Positions 55,601-64,000 of a stretch of DNA of 64,000 nucleotides are shown one piece after another; position 1 is the stretch's first letter; every line of letters starts with the position of its first letter. Source of the stretch: Actinomycetospora soli (GTDB taxonomy: Bacteria; Actinomycetota; Actinomycetes; Mycobacteriales; Pseudonocardiaceae); contig NZ_JAJNDA010000007.1 of NCBI RefSeq assembly GCF_021026295.1, forward strand, positions 124,001 through 188,000, written 5' to 3'. The notes under the pieces were generated by a model that saw nothing but the letters and a program-made list of their open reading frames with translations, ran no database searches and was not told the origin of the DNA. Position numbers and translations under genes: made by a program.

Positions 55601-55851
55601 GCCGGGTCGTGCTGCCGGCGGGACGGCGGGACGCGGCGGTCCGCCTGCTCGCCGGCGGCGACCCCGCGCTGCGGCTCGGGGCGGATGCCGGCACCGACCC
55701 GGTCGAGCTCGCCCGGCTGGCCCGCGAGCAGCGGGCGGCGTGGGCGCGGCTCGCCGGGCACCCCGGGACCGGTCGCGACGTGCGCGAGGCCGCCACGGTG
55801 CTCGCGGCCTCGTGCGAGGGGGTGCTGGGGACCCTCGCCGACGGCGGCTAG
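52627..55851 (+). CDS. Large membrane sensor histidine kinase with C-terminal extension
   Basis: This encodes 1074 residues from a GTG. About 8 membrane helices span residues 15-345. A GAF-like region follows (about 370-470). The phosphoacceptor is H506 in GLERDLHDGAQHHLVSLRL. The ATPase Asn box is EAVNNARKHAGGALV (N611/N612), with VADEGPGF and GPGRGLRNLDARL as glycine boxes. After the ATPase ends at about 690, roughly 380 residues of Ala/Arg-rich sequence continue, with no recognised domain. This is the only complete kinase in the operon and the likely partner of the response regulator. Confidence 0.88.
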   Translation: MSTAAPVRRSPARVAYWIVFGVVTAMTLVWLAVGALVAVSGATGPGALNEPPGQAVVDYLASGVALVVAGVLLRFGGTAWPTRLLALAMVGTAGAFNLQAHAATSAVRAVTGVEIGELHQVLLHGIAGAAYAGALLTVVDGPAGRRSRVLVPVVAAVLFLAGLGTALLPHTVSCVVFFGFGVPLLGLAAVGPAVRRGPDPEARARARLLTSVLVAALGAALVLAVLTLVLALLDRPGLTIDDPTARHGGPGAGLPLALLFWFARLTAAVVALAVLAARRARSAERLLHRGLAGLLTVVALGGLAVLLATLVSAGLGRATGGTVTGWVVATAAVAASWLPAARAADRLAERLLYGDRATPAGVLARLGASTRGDAPLDAVPEAVGRALGARAVRLTVQRDGLRDRVLTWREPGAGDEEVRFGVHHGGREVGALAVDAEALAGGGDRTRLVAEVADGLGGVLAAHRLEIELERQLRAGVAHAERIAAARRRLVAETDAERRGLERDLHDGAQHHLVSLRLTLGLVEHLVGAGRLAEARTRLDVLVDQLDTAAAVLDETASGVSSAAVARLGLVAALEADLAGDPAVTLAADGVGRYDPEVEEAAYFVCLEAVNNARKHAGGALVRVRLTGRPEVLRLEVADEGPGFTVRHDGPGRGLRNLDARLTRVGGHVSVASAPGEGTTVRAELPVRTADEPEAPAAARTGLVAALVDGTGPGERDAARERVAAGARALVASVAPPRAAGPAEVADTRLLAVVPGLAAGPRTSGAAVGPPLPDAGSGLFDATQTLLRRAVEQVPVGDPAAGAVADLAAAAVAPWRYGVTGPTPADAAAVAAAVAGVVERPAVVVDLAARAALGPLTADELVDALVLLAEDDTGTRVPDWLADVPSVAARVVPAVSVSVEDPLTGVVRVALPGPGALGGRNVGRLATVLVARCRPRAARRRAATALDAADRLVAAAPGRPWTRWLAVELDRVRSAGARELAEAALADALDTGRVVLPAGRRDAAVRLLAGGDPALRLGADAGTDPVELARLAREQRAAWARLAGHPGTGRDVREAATVLAASCEGVLGTLADGG

Positions 55852-56603
55852 TTCGTCCGGTCCGCGAGCTCGGCGCGCCACTCGGCGGTGCGGGGCCGGT
55901 AGGCGGCCGCGCACACCACCGAGCGCTCGTCGAGCATCCGCTCGAAGGCGGGCACGGTGTCCGCGACCTCGTGCGGCACGCAGTGCGTGGAGAGCTCGAC
56001 CCGCTCCCGCCCGCTCGGGAAGCGGAAGTGCTCCAGGTCGGCGCGGCGCAGTCCCCAGCGCGAGGCGGCGACCTTGACGCGGCTGACCACGAGCGGACCG
56101 TGCACCCGCAGGTCGCGCAGGCACCGCTCGTCGACGGCTCCCTCCCCGCCCCGGCAGGCCCACGCCCGCTGCGCAGGGGAGAGCAGGTCGGCGCCCGCCC
56201 CCGCCCCCTCGATCACCCGGGTGGCGACCCGCGGGTCGACCTCGCTGCGCACCTCGACGTCGAGCCACAGGCCCCCGGGCACGACGTCGAGCTCCACCCG
56301 GCCCCCGCGCGGCGTGCCGCAGCGCGCCGACGAGCCCGCCCGGCGGGCGGACACGGCCAGGTCGTAGCGGCCGCGGGCGCGGCGGCGCAGCCGCACCTCG
56401 ATCCCGACGCGCAGCAGGTCGAGCGCCGGGGTGTCGACGAGGTAGCTGCGCCGGGTGCTCCACGTGGGCGCGGCGCGCCCGGTGAGCACCTCGGCCACGG
56501 GGCCGGCCGGGCCGGCGAGGAGCGTCTTCAGCTCGACCGAGTCGGCGAGGCCGTGCTCGGCCGTCAGCCGTGACAGTGCTTCGGGCATCCCGAACCTGGG
56601 CAC
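55848..56603 (-). CDS. CYTH-like fold protein
   Basis: This encodes 251 residues. SVELKTLLAG near the start, RRSYLVDTPALDLLRVGIEVRLRRRARGRYDLAVSARR and VELDVVPGGLWLDVEVRSEV follow the strand pattern of CYTH/triphosphate tunnel proteins (YFDTPDL.L...G..LR.R). The opening ExExK motif is only partly kept. CYTH proteins act on polyphosphate, thiamine triphosphate or form cAMP; the activity here is unknown. Its end overlaps the large kinase by 4 bp in convergent orientation. Confidence 0.6.
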   Translation of the reverse strand: MPRFGMPEALSRLTAEHGLADSVELKTLLAGPAGPVAEVLTGRAAPTWSTRRSYLVDTPALDLLRVGIEVRLRRRARGRYDLAVSARRAGSSARCGTPRGGRVELDVVPGGLWLDVEVRSEVDPRVATRVIEGAGAGADLLSPAQRAWACRGGEGAVDERCLRDLRVHGPLVVSRVKVAASRWGLRRADLEHFRFPSGRERVELSTHCVPHEVADTVPAFERMLDERSVVCAAAYRPRTAEWRAELADRTN

Positions 56604-57027
56604 CGCGGCCCTCCCGACGGCAGGGGTGTCGACGGTCCGCGTCGATCCGTCGCGGGTGACTCTAGGGCCTGTCCGCGGCGGCGATAAGAGGCTCGCCGTG
56701 ATCGAGATCCGACGCGCCGTCCACGATCCACTTGCCGTCGACCGGCGCGGTATCTATGGTCGGAAGTGGCTCAGCACACACCGCTCGGCGACTGATCATG
56801 TGCAGTCGTCGCCGTCCGTGGCGTGTCCTGCCGCCCAGCGGCCGACGTCGTCGGCCGAACGGTCGATCAGACCGTGGCGGCATCGTGTGCGCACTTCCCG
56901 GGACCCTGCGCAGGCACACGGCCGGGCGGGCCGTTTCCTCGGCCCGTCCCCCGCTCGACGCCGCCCACCCCGTCGTGCCCCACCGGCGCGGGGGATCCAT
57001 GCAGTCGTGACGAGGAGGGGACGGCCG
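56604..57027. other. 424-bp promoter region of the PQQ island
   Basis: No gene is supported here. The sequence is less GC-rich than the surrounding DNA in places (GATAAGAGG, GTATCTATGG). A candidate promoter, TTGCCG (56732-56737) and TATGGT (56755-56760) 17 bp apart, would give a leader of about 260 nt. CGAGGAGGGG at 57011-57020 is the ribosome-binding site for the next gene. Confidence 0.5.
56732..56760 (+). promoter_or_regulatory. Candidate promoter of the PQQ operon
   Basis: TTGCCG-N17-TATGGT, each hexamer 4/6 to consensus. It is the most promoter-like pair I see in the gap, but other starts nearer to 57028 cannot be excluded. Confidence 0.3.
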
Positions 57028-57492
57028 ATGACGGCCACGGCAGACGATCGAGCGGACGAGCTCCACGCTGCGGGACTGGACGGACAGAACCGCACCACGT
57101 TGGGCCGGATGCTCGGCACCGGCAACGTGGGGTACGCCGAGGAGGGCGAGGACGGCGTCATGCGCGCCACCGTCCGCATCCCCGAGGACCAGCTGATCTT
57201 CGACCCGAGCATCATCGTGTTCCCGCACGGCGGGGACATCGAGCTCACGTTGATCAACGACGACAAGAACACCCACTGCGCCCTCCTGCCGCACAACGGT
57301 GACCCCAAGATCATCTGGCTGGTCAACCACTCGAAGGGCACGGCGCGGCTGAACCTCGACGGTCCGGGGGCCTACTGGTACGGCTCCACCACCGGCAACG
57401 ACGAGGGCCGCGGGCTGACCGCCGCCCTGGTCATGGGTGGCGAGGTGCCGGACTCGGCCAAGCTCGACCGTCCGGCGCAGCCCCGTCCCTGA
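57028..57492 (+). CDS. PQQ-associated cupredoxin-like protein (MSMEG_3727 type)
   Basis: This encodes 154 residues, no signal peptide. The IPEDQLIFDPSIIVFPHGGDIELTLINDDKNTHCALLPHN segment and the end loop GPGAYWYGSTTGNDEGRGL match the cupredoxin fold and the family found next to actinobacterial PQQ dehydrogenases. In copper-binding members the end loop is like YWYxCxxPGH.xxGM; here Cys, His and Met are replaced, so a type 1 copper site cannot form at that loop. H83, C84 and H89 remain as possible ligands. It precedes the dehydrogenase by 19 bp and probably works with it. Confidence 0.8.
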   Translation: MTATADDRADELHAAGLDGQNRTTLGRMLGTGNVGYAEEGEDGVMRATVRIPEDQLIFDPSIIVFPHGGDIELTLINDDKNTHCALLPHNGDPKIIWLVNHSKGTARLNLDGPGAYWYGSTTGNDEGRGLTAALVMGGEVPDSAKLDRPAQPRP

Positions 57493-57511: not shown

Positions 57512-59200
57512 ATGACCGACTACGTCGACGCCGGCGAGGCCGTCGCCCACCGCACACTGTCCAACGTCAAGGGCGAGGCGCCCGCGACGCGCAACGTCGA
57601 CTACGAGCGCATCCAGGGTGCCCGGTCGGAGCCGGAGAACTGGCTCACGTACTACGGCACCTACGACGGACAGCGCTACTCGACGCTGAACCAGATCACC
57701 AAGGACAACGTCCGCAAGCTGGTGCCGGCCTGGGTCTTCCAGGCGGGGTCGACCGGCATGCACTCCGGCGCGTCCACCTACTCCTTCGAGGCCACCCCGC
57801 TCGTCGTCGACGGCGTCATGTACGTCTCCGGCCCCGACGGCAAGGTGTGGGCCATCGACCCGAAGACCGGCGAGGAGCTGTGGCGCTACAAGCACGCGTC
57901 GCCGTTCGACACCTCGCTGTGCTGCGGCAACGTGAACCGCGGCGTCGCCGTGGGCCACGGCAAGGTGTACATGTACACCCTGAACGCCCACCTCATCGCG
58001 CTCGACGCGACGACGGGCGAGAAGGTCTGGGACACCACCAACGGTGACGTCCGGGCCGGCGAGAGCGGCTCGGCCGCCCCGCTGATCGTCAAGGACATGG
58101 TCGTCGTGGGCAGCGCCGGCGGCGAGTTCGGCGTCCGCGGCCACCTCGACGCGTTCGACGCCCAGACCGGCGAGCGGCGCTGGCGCTGCTACACCGTGCC
58201 GAAGCCGGGCGAGCCCGGCTCGGAGACCTGGCCGGAGGACGGCGAGGCCTGGCAGCGCGGTGGCGCGAACTGCTGGATCACCCCGACCTACGACCCCGAG
58301 CTCGAGCTGCTCTTCCAGGGCACGGGCAACCCGGCGCCGGACTTCGACGGCGGCGTGCGCCCGGGGGACAACCTCTACACCGACTCGGTCGTGGCGATCG
58401 ACGTGAACTCCGGCGAGATCCGGTGGCACTACCAGTTCACGCCGCACGACCTGTGGGACTACGACTCGACGATGGAGAACCTGCTCTTCGACGCACCGGA
58501 CGGGCGCAAGCTGCTCGCCCACGCGGACAAGAACGGCTACTTCTTCGTCATCGACCGCACCAACGGCGAGCTCGTCCGGGTCTTCCCCTTCGTCGACCGC
58601 ATCACCTGGGGCGAGATCAGCCCCGACGGCAAGGTGACGCCGAAGATCTACCCCGACGAGGAGGGCGTCCCCGTCCACTTCTGGCCCGGCCCGGCCGGTG
58701 GCAAGGAGTGGACGCACATGTCGTACAACCCCGAGACCGGGCTGATCTACATCCCGGTCCAGGAGGTCGGCGCGACCGCCACCCGCCGTCGTCGGGAGTT
58801 CAAGGAGTCGATCCCCTACTGGGGCGCCGGCGTGGCCGTCGACCTCGACGACCACTACGGCTTCGTCAGCGCGGTCGACCCGCTGACCGGCGAGGAGAAG
58901 TGGCGCTGGAACCACGAGTACCCGATGTGCGCGTCGAACGTGTCGACCGCGGGCGGGCTCGTCTTCCAGGGCACGCCGAGCGGCGAGTTCGTGGCCCTCG
59001 ACGCGCAGACCGGCGAGAAGCTCTGGCAGTTCCAGTGCGGCAGCGGCCACCACTCGAGCCCGATCACCTTCGAGGTCGACGGGCGCCAGTACGTGGCCGT
59101 GCCGACCGGCTGGGGCGGCTGGGTCGAGGGCTTCCTGCCCGGCCTGCTCGGCGCCGCCGCGGGTGACGCGCTGTTCTGTTTCGCACTGCCCGAGGACTGA
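57512..59200 (+). CDS. PQQ-dependent alcohol dehydrogenase, lanthanide type
   Basis: This encodes 562 residues, an eight-bladed quinoprotein propeller. The vicinal disulfide is C137-C138 (TSLCCGNVN). Metal/PQQ residues are E205 (GGEFGVRG), N273 (GTGNPAPD) and D316 (HDLWDYDST). D318, two residues after the catalytic Asp, is the extra carboxylate that marks lanthanide-dependent XoxF/ExaF-like enzymes; calcium enzymes have Ala there. Alcohols such as methanol or ethanol are likely substrates. The N-terminus MTDYVDAGEAVAHRTLS has no signal peptide, unusual for a normally exported enzyme. No cytochrome c gene is adjacent. Confidence 0.9.
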   Translation: MTDYVDAGEAVAHRTLSNVKGEAPATRNVDYERIQGARSEPENWLTYYGTYDGQRYSTLNQITKDNVRKLVPAWVFQAGSTGMHSGASTYSFEATPLVVDGVMYVSGPDGKVWAIDPKTGEELWRYKHASPFDTSLCCGNVNRGVAVGHGKVYMYTLNAHLIALDATTGEKVWDTTNGDVRAGESGSAAPLIVKDMVVVGSAGGEFGVRGHLDAFDAQTGERRWRCYTVPKPGEPGSETWPEDGEAWQRGGANCWITPTYDPELELLFQGTGNPAPDFDGGVRPGDNLYTDSVVAIDVNSGEIRWHYQFTPHDLWDYDSTMENLLFDAPDGRKLLAHADKNGYFFVIDRTNGELVRVFPFVDRITWGEISPDGKVTPKIYPDEEGVPVHFWPGPAGGKEWTHMSYNPETGLIYIPVQEVGATATRRRREFKESIPYWGAGVAVDLDDHYGFVSAVDPLTGEEKWRWNHEYPMCASNVSTAGGLVFQGTPSGEFVALDAQTGEKLWQFQCGSGHHSSPITFEVDGRQYVAVPTGWGGWVEGFLPGLLGAAAGDALFCFALPED

Positions 59201-59247: not shown

Positions 59248-59328
59248 ATGGAGTGGGAGACCCCGGAGTTCACCGAAATCGGTGTCGCCCCTGAGGTGAC
59301 GATGTACGTCGCCCAGATGGACGACTGA
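59248..59328 (+). CDS. pqqA: PQQ precursor peptide PqqA
   Basis: This encodes 26 residues: [17 protein letters not shown] then TMYVAQMDD. The conserved E-V-T-M-Y core is present with E16 and Y20, the residues that become cross-linked to form PQQ. The size (usually 22-29) and position before pqqBCDE leave little doubt. The ATG follows AAGGGAGG by 6 bp. A strong hairpin starts 15 nt after its stop and probably keeps this peptide in excess over the downstream enzymes. It lies 47 bp after the dehydrogenase gene, so substrate and user enzyme are likely co-expressed. Confidence 0.95.
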
Positions 59329-59342
59329 TCTGGTAATGCCGC

Positions 59343-59372
59343 CAGGGGCGTCGGAGAAATCCGGCGCCCCTG
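59343..59372 (+). terminator. GAAA-capped hairpin between pqqA and rubredoxin gene
   Basis: CAGGGGCGTCGGA (59343-59355) and TCCGGCGCCCCTG (59360-59372) pair over 13 bp, with one G-T wobble, around a GAAA tetraloop. It begins 15 nt after the pqqA stop and ends 32 nt before the rubredoxin start. It likely acts as a partial terminator or a 3' stabiliser for the pqqA message rather than a full stop, because the operon continues. Confidence 0.7.
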
Positions 59373-59404
59373 CTCGGCGTGTGGAGCGAGAAACGGGGAA
59401 CCCG

Positions 59405-59605
59405 ATGAGTGCGCCGCCCGTGGCCAGCAAGTGGATCTGCGAGATGTGCGGGCTCATCTATGATCCGGAGGAGGGTGACCCCGACAGCGGCATCCCGCCC
59501 GGGACGCCCTTCGAGGACATTCCCGACGACTGGATGTGCCCGATCTGCGGCGCCGAGAAGGCGGATTTCCGTGAGGTGCAACCGGGAGAGGATCTCGACC
59601 TATGA
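59405..59605 (+). CDS. Rubredoxin
   Basis: This encodes 66 residues. The iron site is C12-x2-C15 ([12 protein letters not shown]) and C45-x2-C48 ([12 protein letters not shown]). The [22 protein letters not shown] spacer is standard rubredoxin. It carries single electrons in the cytoplasm. Its stop overlaps the next gene's ATG by 4 bp, so it is probably the electron donor for the R2-like diiron protein. A rubredoxin between pqqA and pqqB is not part of the classical pqqABCDE set. The ATG at 59405 is taken over an upstream start inside the hairpin. Confidence 0.93.
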
Positions 59606-60366
59606 TCACCGGGTACGGCCACTTCGTCCAACTCGCCGAGTCGCTGCAGTGGGACGAGAAGGCCATCGACCTCACCGGCGACGTCGAGGCGTGGCCGGAG
59701 CTCGAGGCCTCCGAGCGCGAGCGGGTGCTCGGCCTGATCGCCGGTTTCTGCGTGGGGGAGATGGCGGTCGCGACCCACCTCGGCTCGTTCGAGGACCGGG
59801 CGAGCACCGACGACCAGATGGCCGGCTGCTTCCGGGCCCAGGCGCGCGACGAGGCCCGGCACGCCCGCTTCTTCGACCGCGTCGCCGGCGAGGTGGTCGG
59901 CATCCCCGGCGAGAGCCTCGCCGACCGGCTGGACACCCTGCGCGACCGCGTGAGCCCCGAGCTGCTGGAGCTGTTCGAGGAGCGCCTGCCCACCCTCGCC
60001 GCCGACCTCGCCGCCGGGGAGAAGGACCTCACCGCGGCGGTCAGCCTCTACCACATGATCCTCGAGGGCGTGGTGCTCACGGCGGGCCAGCACGCCCTGC
60101 TCGCCGCCCTCGACCGGTGCTCGGTGAGCCTGCCCGGCGTGCACAAGGGCATGGAGCTGGTGCTGCGCGACGAGCGCTGGCACATCGGCTTCGGCTCGCG
60201 GGTGATCCAGAGCGCCGACGTCGTCTCCGACGAGATGGAGGAGCTCCTCCAGCAGGGGATGAAGGCCGCGCACGCCTGGGGCGAGCTCATCGACCGCAAG
60301 GACATCGAGAAGGTGGAGCAGCTGCACAAGCGCCGCCTGAAGTCCGTCGGCATCAAGTTCTGGTGA
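59602..60366 (+). CDS. R2-like (ferritin-like) diiron protein in pqq operon
   Basis: This encodes 254 residues, entirely helical. The diiron ligands of a ribonucleotide-reductase-R2-like four-helix bundle are complete: E53 ([10 protein letters not shown]), E84-x2-H87 ([10 protein letters not shown]), E155 ([10 protein letters not shown]) and E191-x2-H194 ([10 protein letters not shown]). Databases often label such proteins ribonucleotide reductase beta-like, but no nrdA is near. Its coupling with rubredoxin suggests an oxygen-activating oxidase or hydroxylase. Location within the pqq genes suggests action on PqqA, a PQQ intermediate or the alcohol dehydrogenase. Function is inferred, not established. 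Confidence 0.8.
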
Positions 60367-60373
60367 CCGCCCC

Positions 60374-61261
60374 GTGAAGGTCCGCGTCCTCGGGTCGTCC
60401 GCCGGTGGCGGGCTCCCGCAGTGGAACTGCTCCTGCGCCGGCTGCGCGGCCGCCCGCGCGGGCACGGTCGAACCCCGCACGCAGTCGTCCGTCGCGGTCA
60501 TCGACGACGGACCCGCTGGTGCTCGTGCATTTCTCGTCAACGCCTCGCCCGACGTCCGCCAGCAGCTCACGGCGGCTGCCGACCTGCACCCGGGCAGCAC
60601 GCGACGGAGCCCGGTCGAGGCGATCCTGCTGACCGACGCGGAGATCGACCACACGCTGGGCCTGCTCATCCTGCGCGAGGGTTCCGGGGTGACCGTGCAC
60701 GCCACCGCCGCCTCCGAGGCGGTGCTGCGCGAGGGGACCGGCTTCCTGACGACGCTCGAGGCCTACTGCCCGGTCACGGTGGTCGGGGTGGGGATCGGGG
60801 TCGAGCACGCCCTCACCGACGACCTGACCTACACGGCGTTCGACCTGCCGACGGGCAAGACCCCGCGGTTCCCGACGTCGGGTCCGGAGGAGGGCCGCGT
60901 CGTCGGCTACCGGTTCCACGACCGCCGGACCGGCGGCGTCGTGGTGTACGCGCCGGGCGTGGCCGACCTCGCGCCGCTGCGCGCGGCGTGCACGGGCGCG
61001 GACGTGCTGCTCGTCGACGGGACCTGCTTCCACGACGACGAGCTCGTCCGGCTCGGGCTGGGCCGCAAGACCGCCGCCGACATGGGCCACGTCGCGCTCG
61101 AGCGCTCGCTGGACGCGTTCGCCGACCTCGGCGTGCCCCGGATCGTGCTGGTGCACGTCAACAACTCGAACCCGATCCTCCTGCCCGGGGCCGCGGAGGG
61201 CCTCGTCGTCGGGAAGGCCGGGGTGGAGATCGGGACCGACGGGACGGAGATCGTGGCATGA
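60374..61261 (+). CDS. pqqB: PQQ biosynthesis protein PqqB
   Basis: This encodes 295 residues from a GTG. MKVRVLGSSAGGGLPQWNCSCAGCAAAR is the PqqB signature, with the zinc-binding C19-x-C21-x2-C24. The metallo-beta-lactamase-like metal site is represented by LTDAEIDHTLGLLILRE. In the family PqqB acts as an iron-dependent hydroxylase of the cross-linked Glu-Tyr intermediate. It lies 7 bp after the diiron gene and overlaps pqqC by 4 bp. Confidence 0.95.
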   Translation: MKVRVLGSSAGGGLPQWNCSCAGCAAARAGTVEPRTQSSVAVIDDGPAGARAFLVNASPDVRQQLTAAADLHPGSTRRSPVEAILLTDAEIDHTLGLLILREGSGVTVHATAASEAVLREGTGFLTTLEAYCPVTVVGVGIGVEHALTDDLTYTAFDLPTGKTPRFPTSGPEEGRVVGYRFHDRRTGGVVVYAPGVADLAPLRAACTGADVLLVDGTCFHDDELVRLGLGRKTAADMGHVALERSLDAFADLGVPRIVLVHVNNSNPILLPGAAEGLVVGKAGVEIGTDGTEIVA

Positions 61262-63433: not shown

Positions 63434-64000
63434 CTAGTCGTCCATCGGCACGCCGCCGAAGGCCACCAGGCTGACGACGAAGTAGGCGACGTACAGGGCG
63501 AGCAGGACGATCCCGTGCCAGCGGCGCAGCCGGCCGGTGGCGAGGAAGCCCGCCGCGATCGCCGTCATGACGATGAGCACGGGCAGGTGCCAGGCCACCA
63601 CGTCCTCGTCGACCGCGATGGCGCCGCCCGTGAGCAGGATGATCCCGAGCTTGCCGGTGACCGAGAAGACGACGCTGCCGATGACGTTGGCGACCGCGAT
63701 CTCCGGCGCCCCCCGGCGCTGCGGCTCGGCGGTGAGGAAGATGTCCTCGAGCGACAGGGCCAGCGTCGCGATCGTGACGCCGAAGACGGTCCCCTCGATC
63801 CCGAGGGTCTCGATCACGCCCTCGGTGGCCTGACCGGCCGCGACGGCGCCGATCACGAGCCCGACCAGGGCGAGGACGGCGAGCCCGAGCCCCACCGCGG
63901 GGGAGTGCGCGCGGGCCTTGAGGAAGCCCTGGTCGACCCGCAGGTCGGCCGGCAGCGTGAAGTGGTGGCCCGGGGTGGCCGGCGGCTCGTCGCGCAGCGC
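63434..64000 (-). CDS. Sodium/calcium exchanger-family membrane protein (partial)
   Basis: Frame is open to the right edge, so only the C-terminal about 188 residues are present. Several hydrophobic helices are visible (LGLAVLALVGLVIGAVAAGQA and later segments). A CaCA-type alpha-repeat-like stretch reads GVTIATLALSLEDIFLTAEPQRRGAPEIAVANVIGSVVFSVTGKLGIILL. These antiporters exchange calcium or another cation for sodium or protons. The closest motif is not canonical (SxEDxxxT in place of a more typical ST.PE.), so substrate is uncertain. It converges on the pqq operon. Confidence 0.7.
   Translation of the reverse strand, partial: ALRDEPPATPGHHFTLPADLRVDQGFLKARAHSPAVGLGLAVLALVGLVIGAVAAGQATEGVIETLGIEGTVFGVTIATLALSLEDIFLTAEPQRRGAPEIAVANVIGSVVFSVTGKLGIILLTGGAIAVDEDVVAWHLPVLIVMTAIAAGFLATGRLRRWHGIVLLALYVAYFVVSLVAFGGVPMDD

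What the first reader, a model, noticed from the sequence alone, without database searches (positions are those of the whole stretch)
59405..60366. Rubredoxin plus R2-like diiron protein inside the PQQ biosynthesis operon
Between pqqA and pqqB lie a rubredoxin and a protein with a full E/ExxH/E/ExxH diiron site, coupled by a 4-bp overlap. Classical pqq operons do not contain them. An electron donor next to an oxygen-activating diiron protein suggests an oxidation of PqqA, of a PQQ intermediate, or of a dehydrogenase cofactor precursor. It could act beside or before PqqB's hydroxylation. I rate this the best candidate here for an undescribed system.
Basis: partly seen in the sequence, partly recalled or inferred. 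Interest (0 to 1): 0.78.

Follow-up and report, generated by a model that had tools for sequence, protein, structure and literature searches.

The report
Rubredoxin-fed oxygen enzyme beside PQQ dehydrogenase
A small electron-carrier protein and an oxygen-activating two-metal enzyme sit inside a vitamin-like cofactor (PQQ) operon, but comparison of many genomes suggests they work with the neighbouring alcohol-oxidising enzyme rather than in making the cofactor, which gives a testable lead on an enzyme family whose natural role is unknown.

Summary
In detail: a rubredoxin (59405-59605) and an R2-type dimetal protein (59602-60366, 4-bp overlap) lie between pqqA and pqqB. All six metal ligands are invariant in 24 aligned relatives, and the predicted fold matches R2-like ligand-binding oxidase (R2lox) best; but the protein scores far below curated R2lox cut-offs and forms its own short family. 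Rubredoxin lies directly upstream in 32 of 44 fetched loci.

The pathway guess is weaker. In 200 family genomes pqqE occurs in 133, the protein in 17. It follows a subclade of the adjacent MSMEG_3727-type protein and PQQ alcohol dehydrogenase (ADH): on 60 paired clusters, holding bearers together is not rejected on the ADH or MSMEG_3727 trees, but is on pqqB, pqqC and pqqE trees. One Pseudonocardia-genus genome keeps closely related pqqABCDE without this ADH type or the pair. Most other MSMEG_3727-linked ADHs of the family have katG instead. Against this, one Solirubrobacterales genome keeps the protein beside pqq, away from the ADH.

Best reading: a rubredoxin-fed R2lox-like oxygenase or oxidase serving a probably cytosolic, lanthanide-type PQQ-ADH module. 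Substrate and reaction are inferred. A PqqA/PQQ role is less likely, not excluded.

The parts
59405..59605 (+). rubredoxin (66 aa), proposed electron donor
   Evidence: PF00301 85 bits, NF045768 92 bits; directly upstream of the R2-like gene in 32 of 44 fetched loci
59602..60366 (+). short R2lox-like dimetal-carboxylate protein (254 aa)
   Evidence: PF00268 49.8 bits; six ligands invariant in 24 of 24 aligned; AF2 pLDDT 92.7; Foldseek ranks 1-32 all R2lox
57028..57492 (+). MSMEG_3727-family PQQ-associated protein; part of the module the pair follows (start codon chosen by eye)
   Evidence: TIGR04339 267 bits, PF23509 257 bits (on 57019-57489)
57512..59200 (+). PQQ-dependent alcohol dehydrogenase with HDLWDYD and CC motifs; no signal peptide seen by eye
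   Evidence: TIGR03075 626 bits; motifs in 77 of 77 aligned ADHs; trees
59248..59328 (+). pqqA precursor peptide (EVTMY core)
   Evidence: TIGR02107 32.2 bits against cut-off 20
59329..59404 (+). strong hairpin between pqqA and rubredoxin
   Evidence: RNA fold -44.2 kcal/mol, z -4.83; a similar stem in at least 15 of 16 Actinomycetospora loci
60374..61261 (+). pqqB
   Evidence: TIGR02108 320 bits
61258..61944 (+). pqqC
   Evidence: PF03070 164 bits
61941..62252 (+). pqqD
   Evidence: PF05402 54 bits
62245..63366 (+). pqqE
   Evidence: TIGR02109 514 bits

Best explanation
The pair is a two-component oxygen-activating system. Rubredoxin passes electrons (from a rubredoxin reductase encoded elsewhere; inferred, not searched for) to an R2lox-like dimetal protein, which reduces O2 and oxidises a substrate. 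It belongs to the functional module of the MSMEG_3727-type protein and the lanthanide-type PQQ alcohol dehydrogenase next door, not to PQQ synthesis as such. Most likely step: it hydroxylates (or otherwise oxidises) a small hydrophobic compound whose alcohol the dehydrogenase then oxidises. Shown here: gene pair, ligand set, fold relationship, conserved pairing, co-distribution with the ADH subclade. Inferred: electron transfer, O2 activation, substrate, order of steps. I put about 0.6 on 'serves the ADH module' and about 0.35 on 'hydroxylase upstream of the ADH'.
For: Co-distribution: all 17 family genomes with the protein also have MSMEG_3727; 35 further MSMEG_3727 genomes lack the protein. 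The MSMEG_3727-linked ADHs of 16 of the 17 bearers (G042 was not fetched) fall in one ADH group, and none of the ADHs of the 35 does. Paired test on 60 clusters (35 with, 25 without): label changes 2 on MSMEG_3727, 3 on ADH, against 6 on pqqC, 6 on pqqE (51 rows) and 5 on pqqB (53 rows). AU test for 'bearers are one clade': p 0.379 (MSMEG_3727) and 0.478 (ADH); 1.4e-7 (pqqC), 4e-72 (pqqE) and 2e-4 (pqqB). Natural experiment: G155 has pqqABCDE sister to a bearer (L032; support 99 on pqqE, 92 on pqqC) but its single MSMEG_3727-ADH is of the other type (L166) and it has no pair. In L016 and L018 the pair stays with MSMEG_3727-ADH-pqqA while pqqBCDE is on another contig; in L040 the protein sits beside MSMEG_3727-ADH, with pqqB-E more than 20 kb away on the contig. 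Fold and ligands are R2lox-like. In a Solirubrobacterales genome a more distant R2lox-like protein is followed by a rubredoxin 76% identical (54 aa) to this one and by an FAD reductase with a Reductase_C domain (L207), the arrangement of an NAD(P)H-fed oxygenase.
Against: In Solirubrobacterales genome G597 the protein lies beside pqqE while MSMEG_3727-ADH is on another contig. L045 and G643 also have it beside pqqE with no ADH near, on short contigs, and no MSMEG_3727 was found in G643. None of the 7 Solirubrobacterales loci has a rubredoxin next to it (two of them have under 600 bp upstream). Two genomes (L217, L218) have an ADH inside the bearer group without the protein, and L187 is a bearer genome outside it. 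In a Solirubrobacterales sample of 101 genomes, 9 of the 11 with a relative of the protein (E<1e-46) lack pqqE, and 3 of the 5 with pqqE lack the protein, so deeper relatives live without this module. The pqq-tree rejections rest largely on the gap between the two bacterial groups; the trees are quick searches; a large AU p does not show a clade. No substrate or catabolic cluster was recognised among the neighbours, which were read by eye only.
Confidence: 0.45

Rival explanations
1. PQQ-pathway oxygenase: the pair oxidises PqqA, the cross-linked peptide or a PQQ intermediate, beside or before PqqB.
For: Position between pqqA and pqqB in the window; pqqB, C or E in 29 of 44 fetched loci; a second locus in one genome holds only pqqA plus the protein (L015); protein beside pqqE away from the ADH in G597.
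Against: pqqA-E complete beside it; 117 of 133 pqqE genomes of the family lack it; pqqB/C/E trees reject bearers as one clade while ADH and MSMEG_3727 trees do not; G155 keeps bearer-type pqqABCDE without it.
Confidence: 0.2
2. Peroxide or O2 scavenger: a rubrerythrin-like peroxidase/oxidase that does for this ADH what the neighbouring katG does for the other ADH clade.
For: katG lies upstream of MSMEG_3727-ADH in 35 of 37 ADHs of the sister clade (the other two are cut at a contig end) and in 0 of 33 bearer loci with an ADH, 30 of them with at least 1.5 kb upstream of MSMEG_3727, nor in four more bearer loci. In three genomes with both ADH types, katG is beside one and the pair beside the other (G046, G079, G139).
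Against: The mutual exclusion may amount to one gain on each side. Ten genomes of another family and six non-bearing loci of a middle group have neither. The position three residues after E155, where rubrerythrins carry an extra Glu (recalled), is V in 24 of 24. Some katG genes of the sister clade lie 1.6-2.0 kb upstream, so 1.5 kb is not proof of absence.
Confidence: 0.2
3. Electron sink: reduced PQQ-ADH passes electrons to rubredoxin and the R2-like protein reduces O2 to water, a soluble terminal oxidase for a cytosolic quinoprotein.
For: ADH and MSMEG_3727 show no signal peptide by eye, so the usual periplasmic cytochrome acceptor would not fit (recalled). A cytochrome partner was not searched for.
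Against: Rubredoxin potentials are low for a PQQ-ADH acceptor (recalled); Solirubrobacterales bearers have no adjacent rubredoxin; the other ADH clade occurs without the pair.
Confidence: 0.1

Closest known systems
R2lox (R2-like ligand-binding oxidase; M. tuberculosis 3EE4, G. kaustophilus 4HR0)
   Same: Fold (Foldseek ranks 1-32), E/ExxH/E/ExxH ligands, Val and Tyr aligned with the ether cross-link positions (roles from PMC6060897, part 1 of 4 read)
   Different: Shorter (254 aa), best R2lox model 74.7 bits against a cut-off of 194, separate clade, rubredoxin partner. Two R2lox papers appear in the listing (15 of 90 listed), both with 0 occurrences of rubredoxin
R2lox-like protein - rubredoxin - FAD reductase row in a Solirubrobacterales genome (L207)
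   Same: R2lox-like protein followed directly by a rubredoxin 76% identical to the window's
   Different: R2lox-like protein only 31% identical; reductase in the row; no pqq or ADH match in the 15-kb locus
Rubrerythrin and ferriperoxin
   Same: Ferritin-like peroxidase; ferriperoxin lacks the rubredoxin domain (PMC3317640, start of abstract seen)
   Different: The extra Glu recalled for rubrerythrins is absent; PF02915 18.9 bits, below its cut-off of 22.8
PQQ biosynthesis operon pqqABCDE
   Same: Shares the operon in the window; pathway steps as in PMC10906245 (passages seen)
   Different: Pair absent from most pqq-bearing genomes of the family sample and not following pqq phylogeny
AlkB-rubredoxin-alcohol dehydrogenase alkane routes (recalled)
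   Same: Rubredoxin-fed di-iron oxygenase feeding an alcohol dehydrogenase, as an analogy of logic
   Different: Unrelated soluble R2-like protein; substrate unknown

Membership tests
R2lox | E/ExxH/E/ExxH dimetal ligand set | tested here: met
   E53, E84, H87, E155, E191, H194 invariant in 24 of 24 aligned
R2lox | Val and Tyr at the cross-link positions (V72, Y162 in G. kaustophilus) | tested here: met
   V56 and Y150 in 24 of 24; but V in 33 and Y in 33 of 36 other R2-like rows, and V in 2 of 3 R2lox rows as aligned, so not diagnostic
R2lox | Score above curated NCBIfam cut-off | tested here: not met
   Best 74.7 bits against 194; an R2lox of the same taxonomic family scores 569.5 against 286
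R2lox | Falls with R2lox in a tree | tested here: not met
   31 rows of this family and near kin form one side of a branch at SH-aLRT 100, apart from the 3 R2lox rows (quick tree)
R2lox | Mn/Fe cofactor, ether cross-link, bound fatty acid | not testable with these tools
   Needs protein
Class I ribonucleotide reductase R2 | Score above NrdB models | tested here: not met
   Best NrdB model 25.4 bits against 309
Class I ribonucleotide reductase R2 | nrdA partner nearby | not tested
   Not searched for
Rubrerythrin | Extra Glu three residues after the third ligand (recalled) | tested here: not met
   V158 in 24 of 24
Rubredoxin | Two CxxCG knuckles and family score | tested here: met
   PF00301 85 bits against 23; NF045768 92 against 90; CEMCG and CPICG in the translation
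PQQ biosynthesis gene | Present with pqq genes and sharing their descent | tested here: not met
   17 of 200 against 133 of 200 genomes; AU rejection on pqqB, C, E
PQQ biosynthesis gene | Needed for PQQ formation | not testable with these tools
   Needs deletion and PQQ assay

The most novel reading that the evidence does not exclude
A distinct R2lox-like family uses rubredoxin as its natural electron donor and, together with a cytosolic lanthanide-type PQQ alcohol dehydrogenase and its MSMEG_3727 partner, forms a two-step soluble oxidation route (C-H to alcohol to aldehyde). That would be a physiological assignment for an R2lox-type oxygenase.
Probability: 0.28. Interest if true: 0.75.

Novelty: new variant of a known kind. 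Interest (0 to 1): 0.55.

Why it matters
[quoted passage not shown] Here a close structural relative comes with its own rubredoxin and a defined metabolic neighbour, so donor, cofactor and substrate class can be tested directly. It also corrects a tempting inference: sitting inside pqqABCDE does not make a gene part of PQQ synthesis.

Tried and rejected
Rejected: plain R2lox membership; ribonucleotide reductase R2; rubrerythrin proper; replacement of PqqB (pqqB is present in the window, and in four Solirubrobacterales bearers); modification of a bearer-specific MSMEG_3727 residue (no column at least 95% fixed in 40 bearers and at most 20% in 55 others).

Led nowhere: MSMEG_3727 structure (pLDDT 57.5; no fold search made of it). 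Promoter and terminator scan around the pair, nothing found. An order-level search centred on G280 (order not named), 0 of 16. Papers, judged from listings: PQQ + rubredoxin + pqqA, 0; PQQ + rubredoxin + diiron, 0; MSMEG_3727, one paper, which mentions the locus MSMEG_3721-3727 only in passing (passages seen); four further searches listed nothing on this pair; some searches gave background.

Open: whether Pseudonocardiaceae and Solirubrobacterales recruited the protein once or twice (AU p 0.0935).

Rows dropped or set by hand: eight of the 60 clusters join an ADH and a pqq set from different loci of one genome (G155, G595, G597, G600, G602, G604, G607, G608); L179 and L187 were set as bearers because the protein is elsewhere in their genomes; re-fetched duplicates (L184-L186) and short pieces were left out; L250 was left out because its ADH is only 34% identical. 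L046 (partial) was left out. Second MSMEG_3727 copies L174-L178 were left out.

Full report
What is there. The window carries an MSMEG_3727-type gene, PQQ alcohol dehydrogenase (ADH), pqqA, rubredoxin, an R2-like dimetal protein, pqqB, pqqC, pqqD and pqqE on one strand. The rubredoxin stop overlaps the R2-like start by 4 bp. Rubredoxin scores 85 bits against a cut-off of 23, the R2-like protein 49.8 against 33.6.

The R2-like protein. One scan of genome contigs gave 44 loci: Actinomycetospora, Pseudonocardia, Saccharopolyspora, Solirubrobacterales and a few metagenome bins. I aligned 24 sequences (window and 23 of the 44). All six ligands are invariant, as are V56 and Y150, which align with the Val and Tyr that form the ether cross-link in R2lox (positions from PMC6060897, part 1 of 4 read; alignment). 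The model is confident (pLDDT 92.7, pTM 0.90) and Foldseek ranks 1-32 are R2lox entries. Yet it is not R2lox by the curated models (74.7 against 194 bits), and in a quick tree of 70 R2-like proteins it forms, with near kin, a group of 31 rows at support 100 apart from three R2lox rows. The V/Y pair is common in other R2-like rows too (33 of 36 each), so it is not diagnostic.

The pairing. Rubredoxin lies directly upstream (gap -4 to +47 bp) in 32 of 44 loci. Of the 12 without, three start at a contig end (L034, L038, L042), seven are Solirubrobacterales, and L015 and L025 lack it. Four more bearer loci fetched later all have it. A Solirubrobacterales genome has a more distant R2lox-like protein, then a rubredoxin 76% identical to this one, then an FAD reductase with a Reductase_C domain (L207), which supports rubredoxin as donor to this kind of protein.

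Neighbourhood. Of the 44 loci, 33 hold MSMEG_3727 and ADH, 29 hold pqqB, C or E, 26 hold both and 8 neither (several are cut by contig ends). Of 15 genomes behind 16 odd loci, 11 have pqqE over the cut-off; one has it split over two contigs; three metagenome bins lack it (those of L034, L036, L037).

Spread. In a phylum sample of 396 genomes only the window's own has the protein at full strength; 16 others have distant R2-like relatives (124-156 bits), none with a pqq match in the short loci read. In 101 Solirubrobacterales genomes, 11 have a relative at E<1e-46, 5 have pqqE (4 over the cut-off), 3 have MSMEG_3727; relative and pqqE coincide in two, G596 and G643. So deeper relatives occur without PQQ genes.

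Which neighbour does it follow? In 200 family genomes the protein (E<1e-100) is in 17, pqqE in 133, MSMEG_3727 in 52. All 17 have MSMEG_3727, and 16 have pqqE on the same contig within about 6.2 kb (start to start); in G037 pqqE is broken over two contigs. The MSMEG_3727-linked ADHs of 16 of the 17 (all but G042, not fetched) fall in one group, and no ADH of the 35 non-bearing MSMEG_3727 genomes falls in it. I then took 60 clusters with ADH and pqqC from the same cluster or genome, 35 with the protein and 25 without (eight of the 60 join two loci of one genome). The label needs 2 changes on MSMEG_3727, 3 on ADH, 5 on pqqB (53 rows), 6 on pqqC and 6 on pqqE (51 rows). Holding bearers together is not rejected for MSMEG_3727 (p 0.379) or ADH (0.478) and is rejected for pqqC (1.4e-7), pqqE (4e-72) and pqqB (2e-4). 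These are quick searches, the groups were seen before testing, and the rejections lean on the distance between the two bacterial groups.

Single cases. G155 (genus g5, that of G122, which is L025, Pseudonocardia hydrocarbonoxydans) keeps pqqABCDE sister to bearer L032, but its one MSMEG_3727-ADH is of the other type and it has no pair. L016 and L018 keep the pair and pqqA with MSMEG_3727-ADH while pqqBCDE is on another contig. Against: in G597 the protein is beside pqqE and MSMEG_3727-ADH is on another contig; L045 and G643 look alike on short contigs, and G643 shows no MSMEG_3727 at all. In the 94-row ADH tree, L217 and L218 are non-bearers inside the bearer group and L187 is a bearer genome outside it.

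katG. The sister ADH clade carries catalase-peroxidase upstream of MSMEG_3727 in 35 of 37 cases, the two others being cut. Bearer loci: 0 of 33 with an ADH (30 with at least 1.5 kb upstream of MSMEG_3727), 0 of four more, and none in the window. In G046, G079 and G139, which have both ADH types, katG sits with one and the pair with the other. But ten genomes of another family and six non-bearing middle-group loci have neither, so the exclusion may be one gain each, and neither gene is obligatory for the cluster.

Mechanism. The evidence supports a rubredoxin-fed R2lox-like protein in the ADH module. Ligand chemistry and the L207 row favour an oxygenase or oxidase over a rubrerythrin-type peroxidase. 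The ADH has HDLWDYD or HDVWDYD in 77 of 77 rows, which I recall as the lanthanide-type signature, and no signal peptide by eye. Bearer ADHs differ from non-bearers at positions otherwise fixed (F338 is A in 32 of 35 bearers, A403 is M in 32 of 35; F in 53 of 53 and A in 52 of 53 others), which would fit another substrate; these were not mapped on a structure, and the Solirubrobacterales bearers mostly keep the common residue. Electron transfer, substrate and reaction are not shown.

Verdict. Observation confirmed; PQQ-biosynthesis interpretation weakened; new variant of a known kind, with a testable role for an R2lox-like protein.

Noticed in passing
window 59329-59404; L004-L014, L016-L019, L036: A long GC-rich hairpin follows pqqA before rubredoxin in the window and in at least 15 of 16 Actinomycetospora loci (L007's longer gap was printed only in part), possibly an attenuator or processing site.
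   Followed up: partly
L007-L014, L017, L019: Ten Actinomycetospora loci carry two pqqA copies, one before the rubredoxin and one before pqqB, both with an intact EVTMY core.
   Followed up: partly
L110, L135-L173 (sister ADH clade): katG lies upstream of MSMEG_3727-ADH in 35 of 37 loci of the sister clade, and a LytTR-type regulator is near in most: an unexplained catalase-peroxidase and quinoprotein linkage.
   Followed up: partly
window 63434-64000 (minus): Sodium/calcium exchanger family protein (PF01699) after pqqE; relatives in 17 of 44 distinct bearer loci and 12 other ADH loci, perhaps metal supply for the ADH.
   Followed up: no
L040 5135-5671; L041 5312-5839; L217-L226: MntP-type putative manganese efflux protein beside the ADH/pqq cluster in L040, L041 and most of L217-L226.
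   Followed up: no
window 55848-56603 (minus): Protein without a Pfam or NCBIfam match at the thresholds used, beside MSMEG_3727; similar proteins lie near the pair in Pseudonocardia loci.
   Followed up: no
L174 (G000:C4:91658-92110): A second MSMEG_3727 gene with no ADH match within about 7 kb in the window's genome, and likewise in G042, G075 and G118.
   Followed up: no
L207 4697-7090: R2lox-like protein, rubredoxin and Reductase_C FAD reductase in a row, with a relative of the window protein on the opposite strand.
   Followed up: partly
L037 5061-6777: An R2lox-like protein in tandem with a relative of the window protein in a Solirubrobacterales bin.
   Followed up: no
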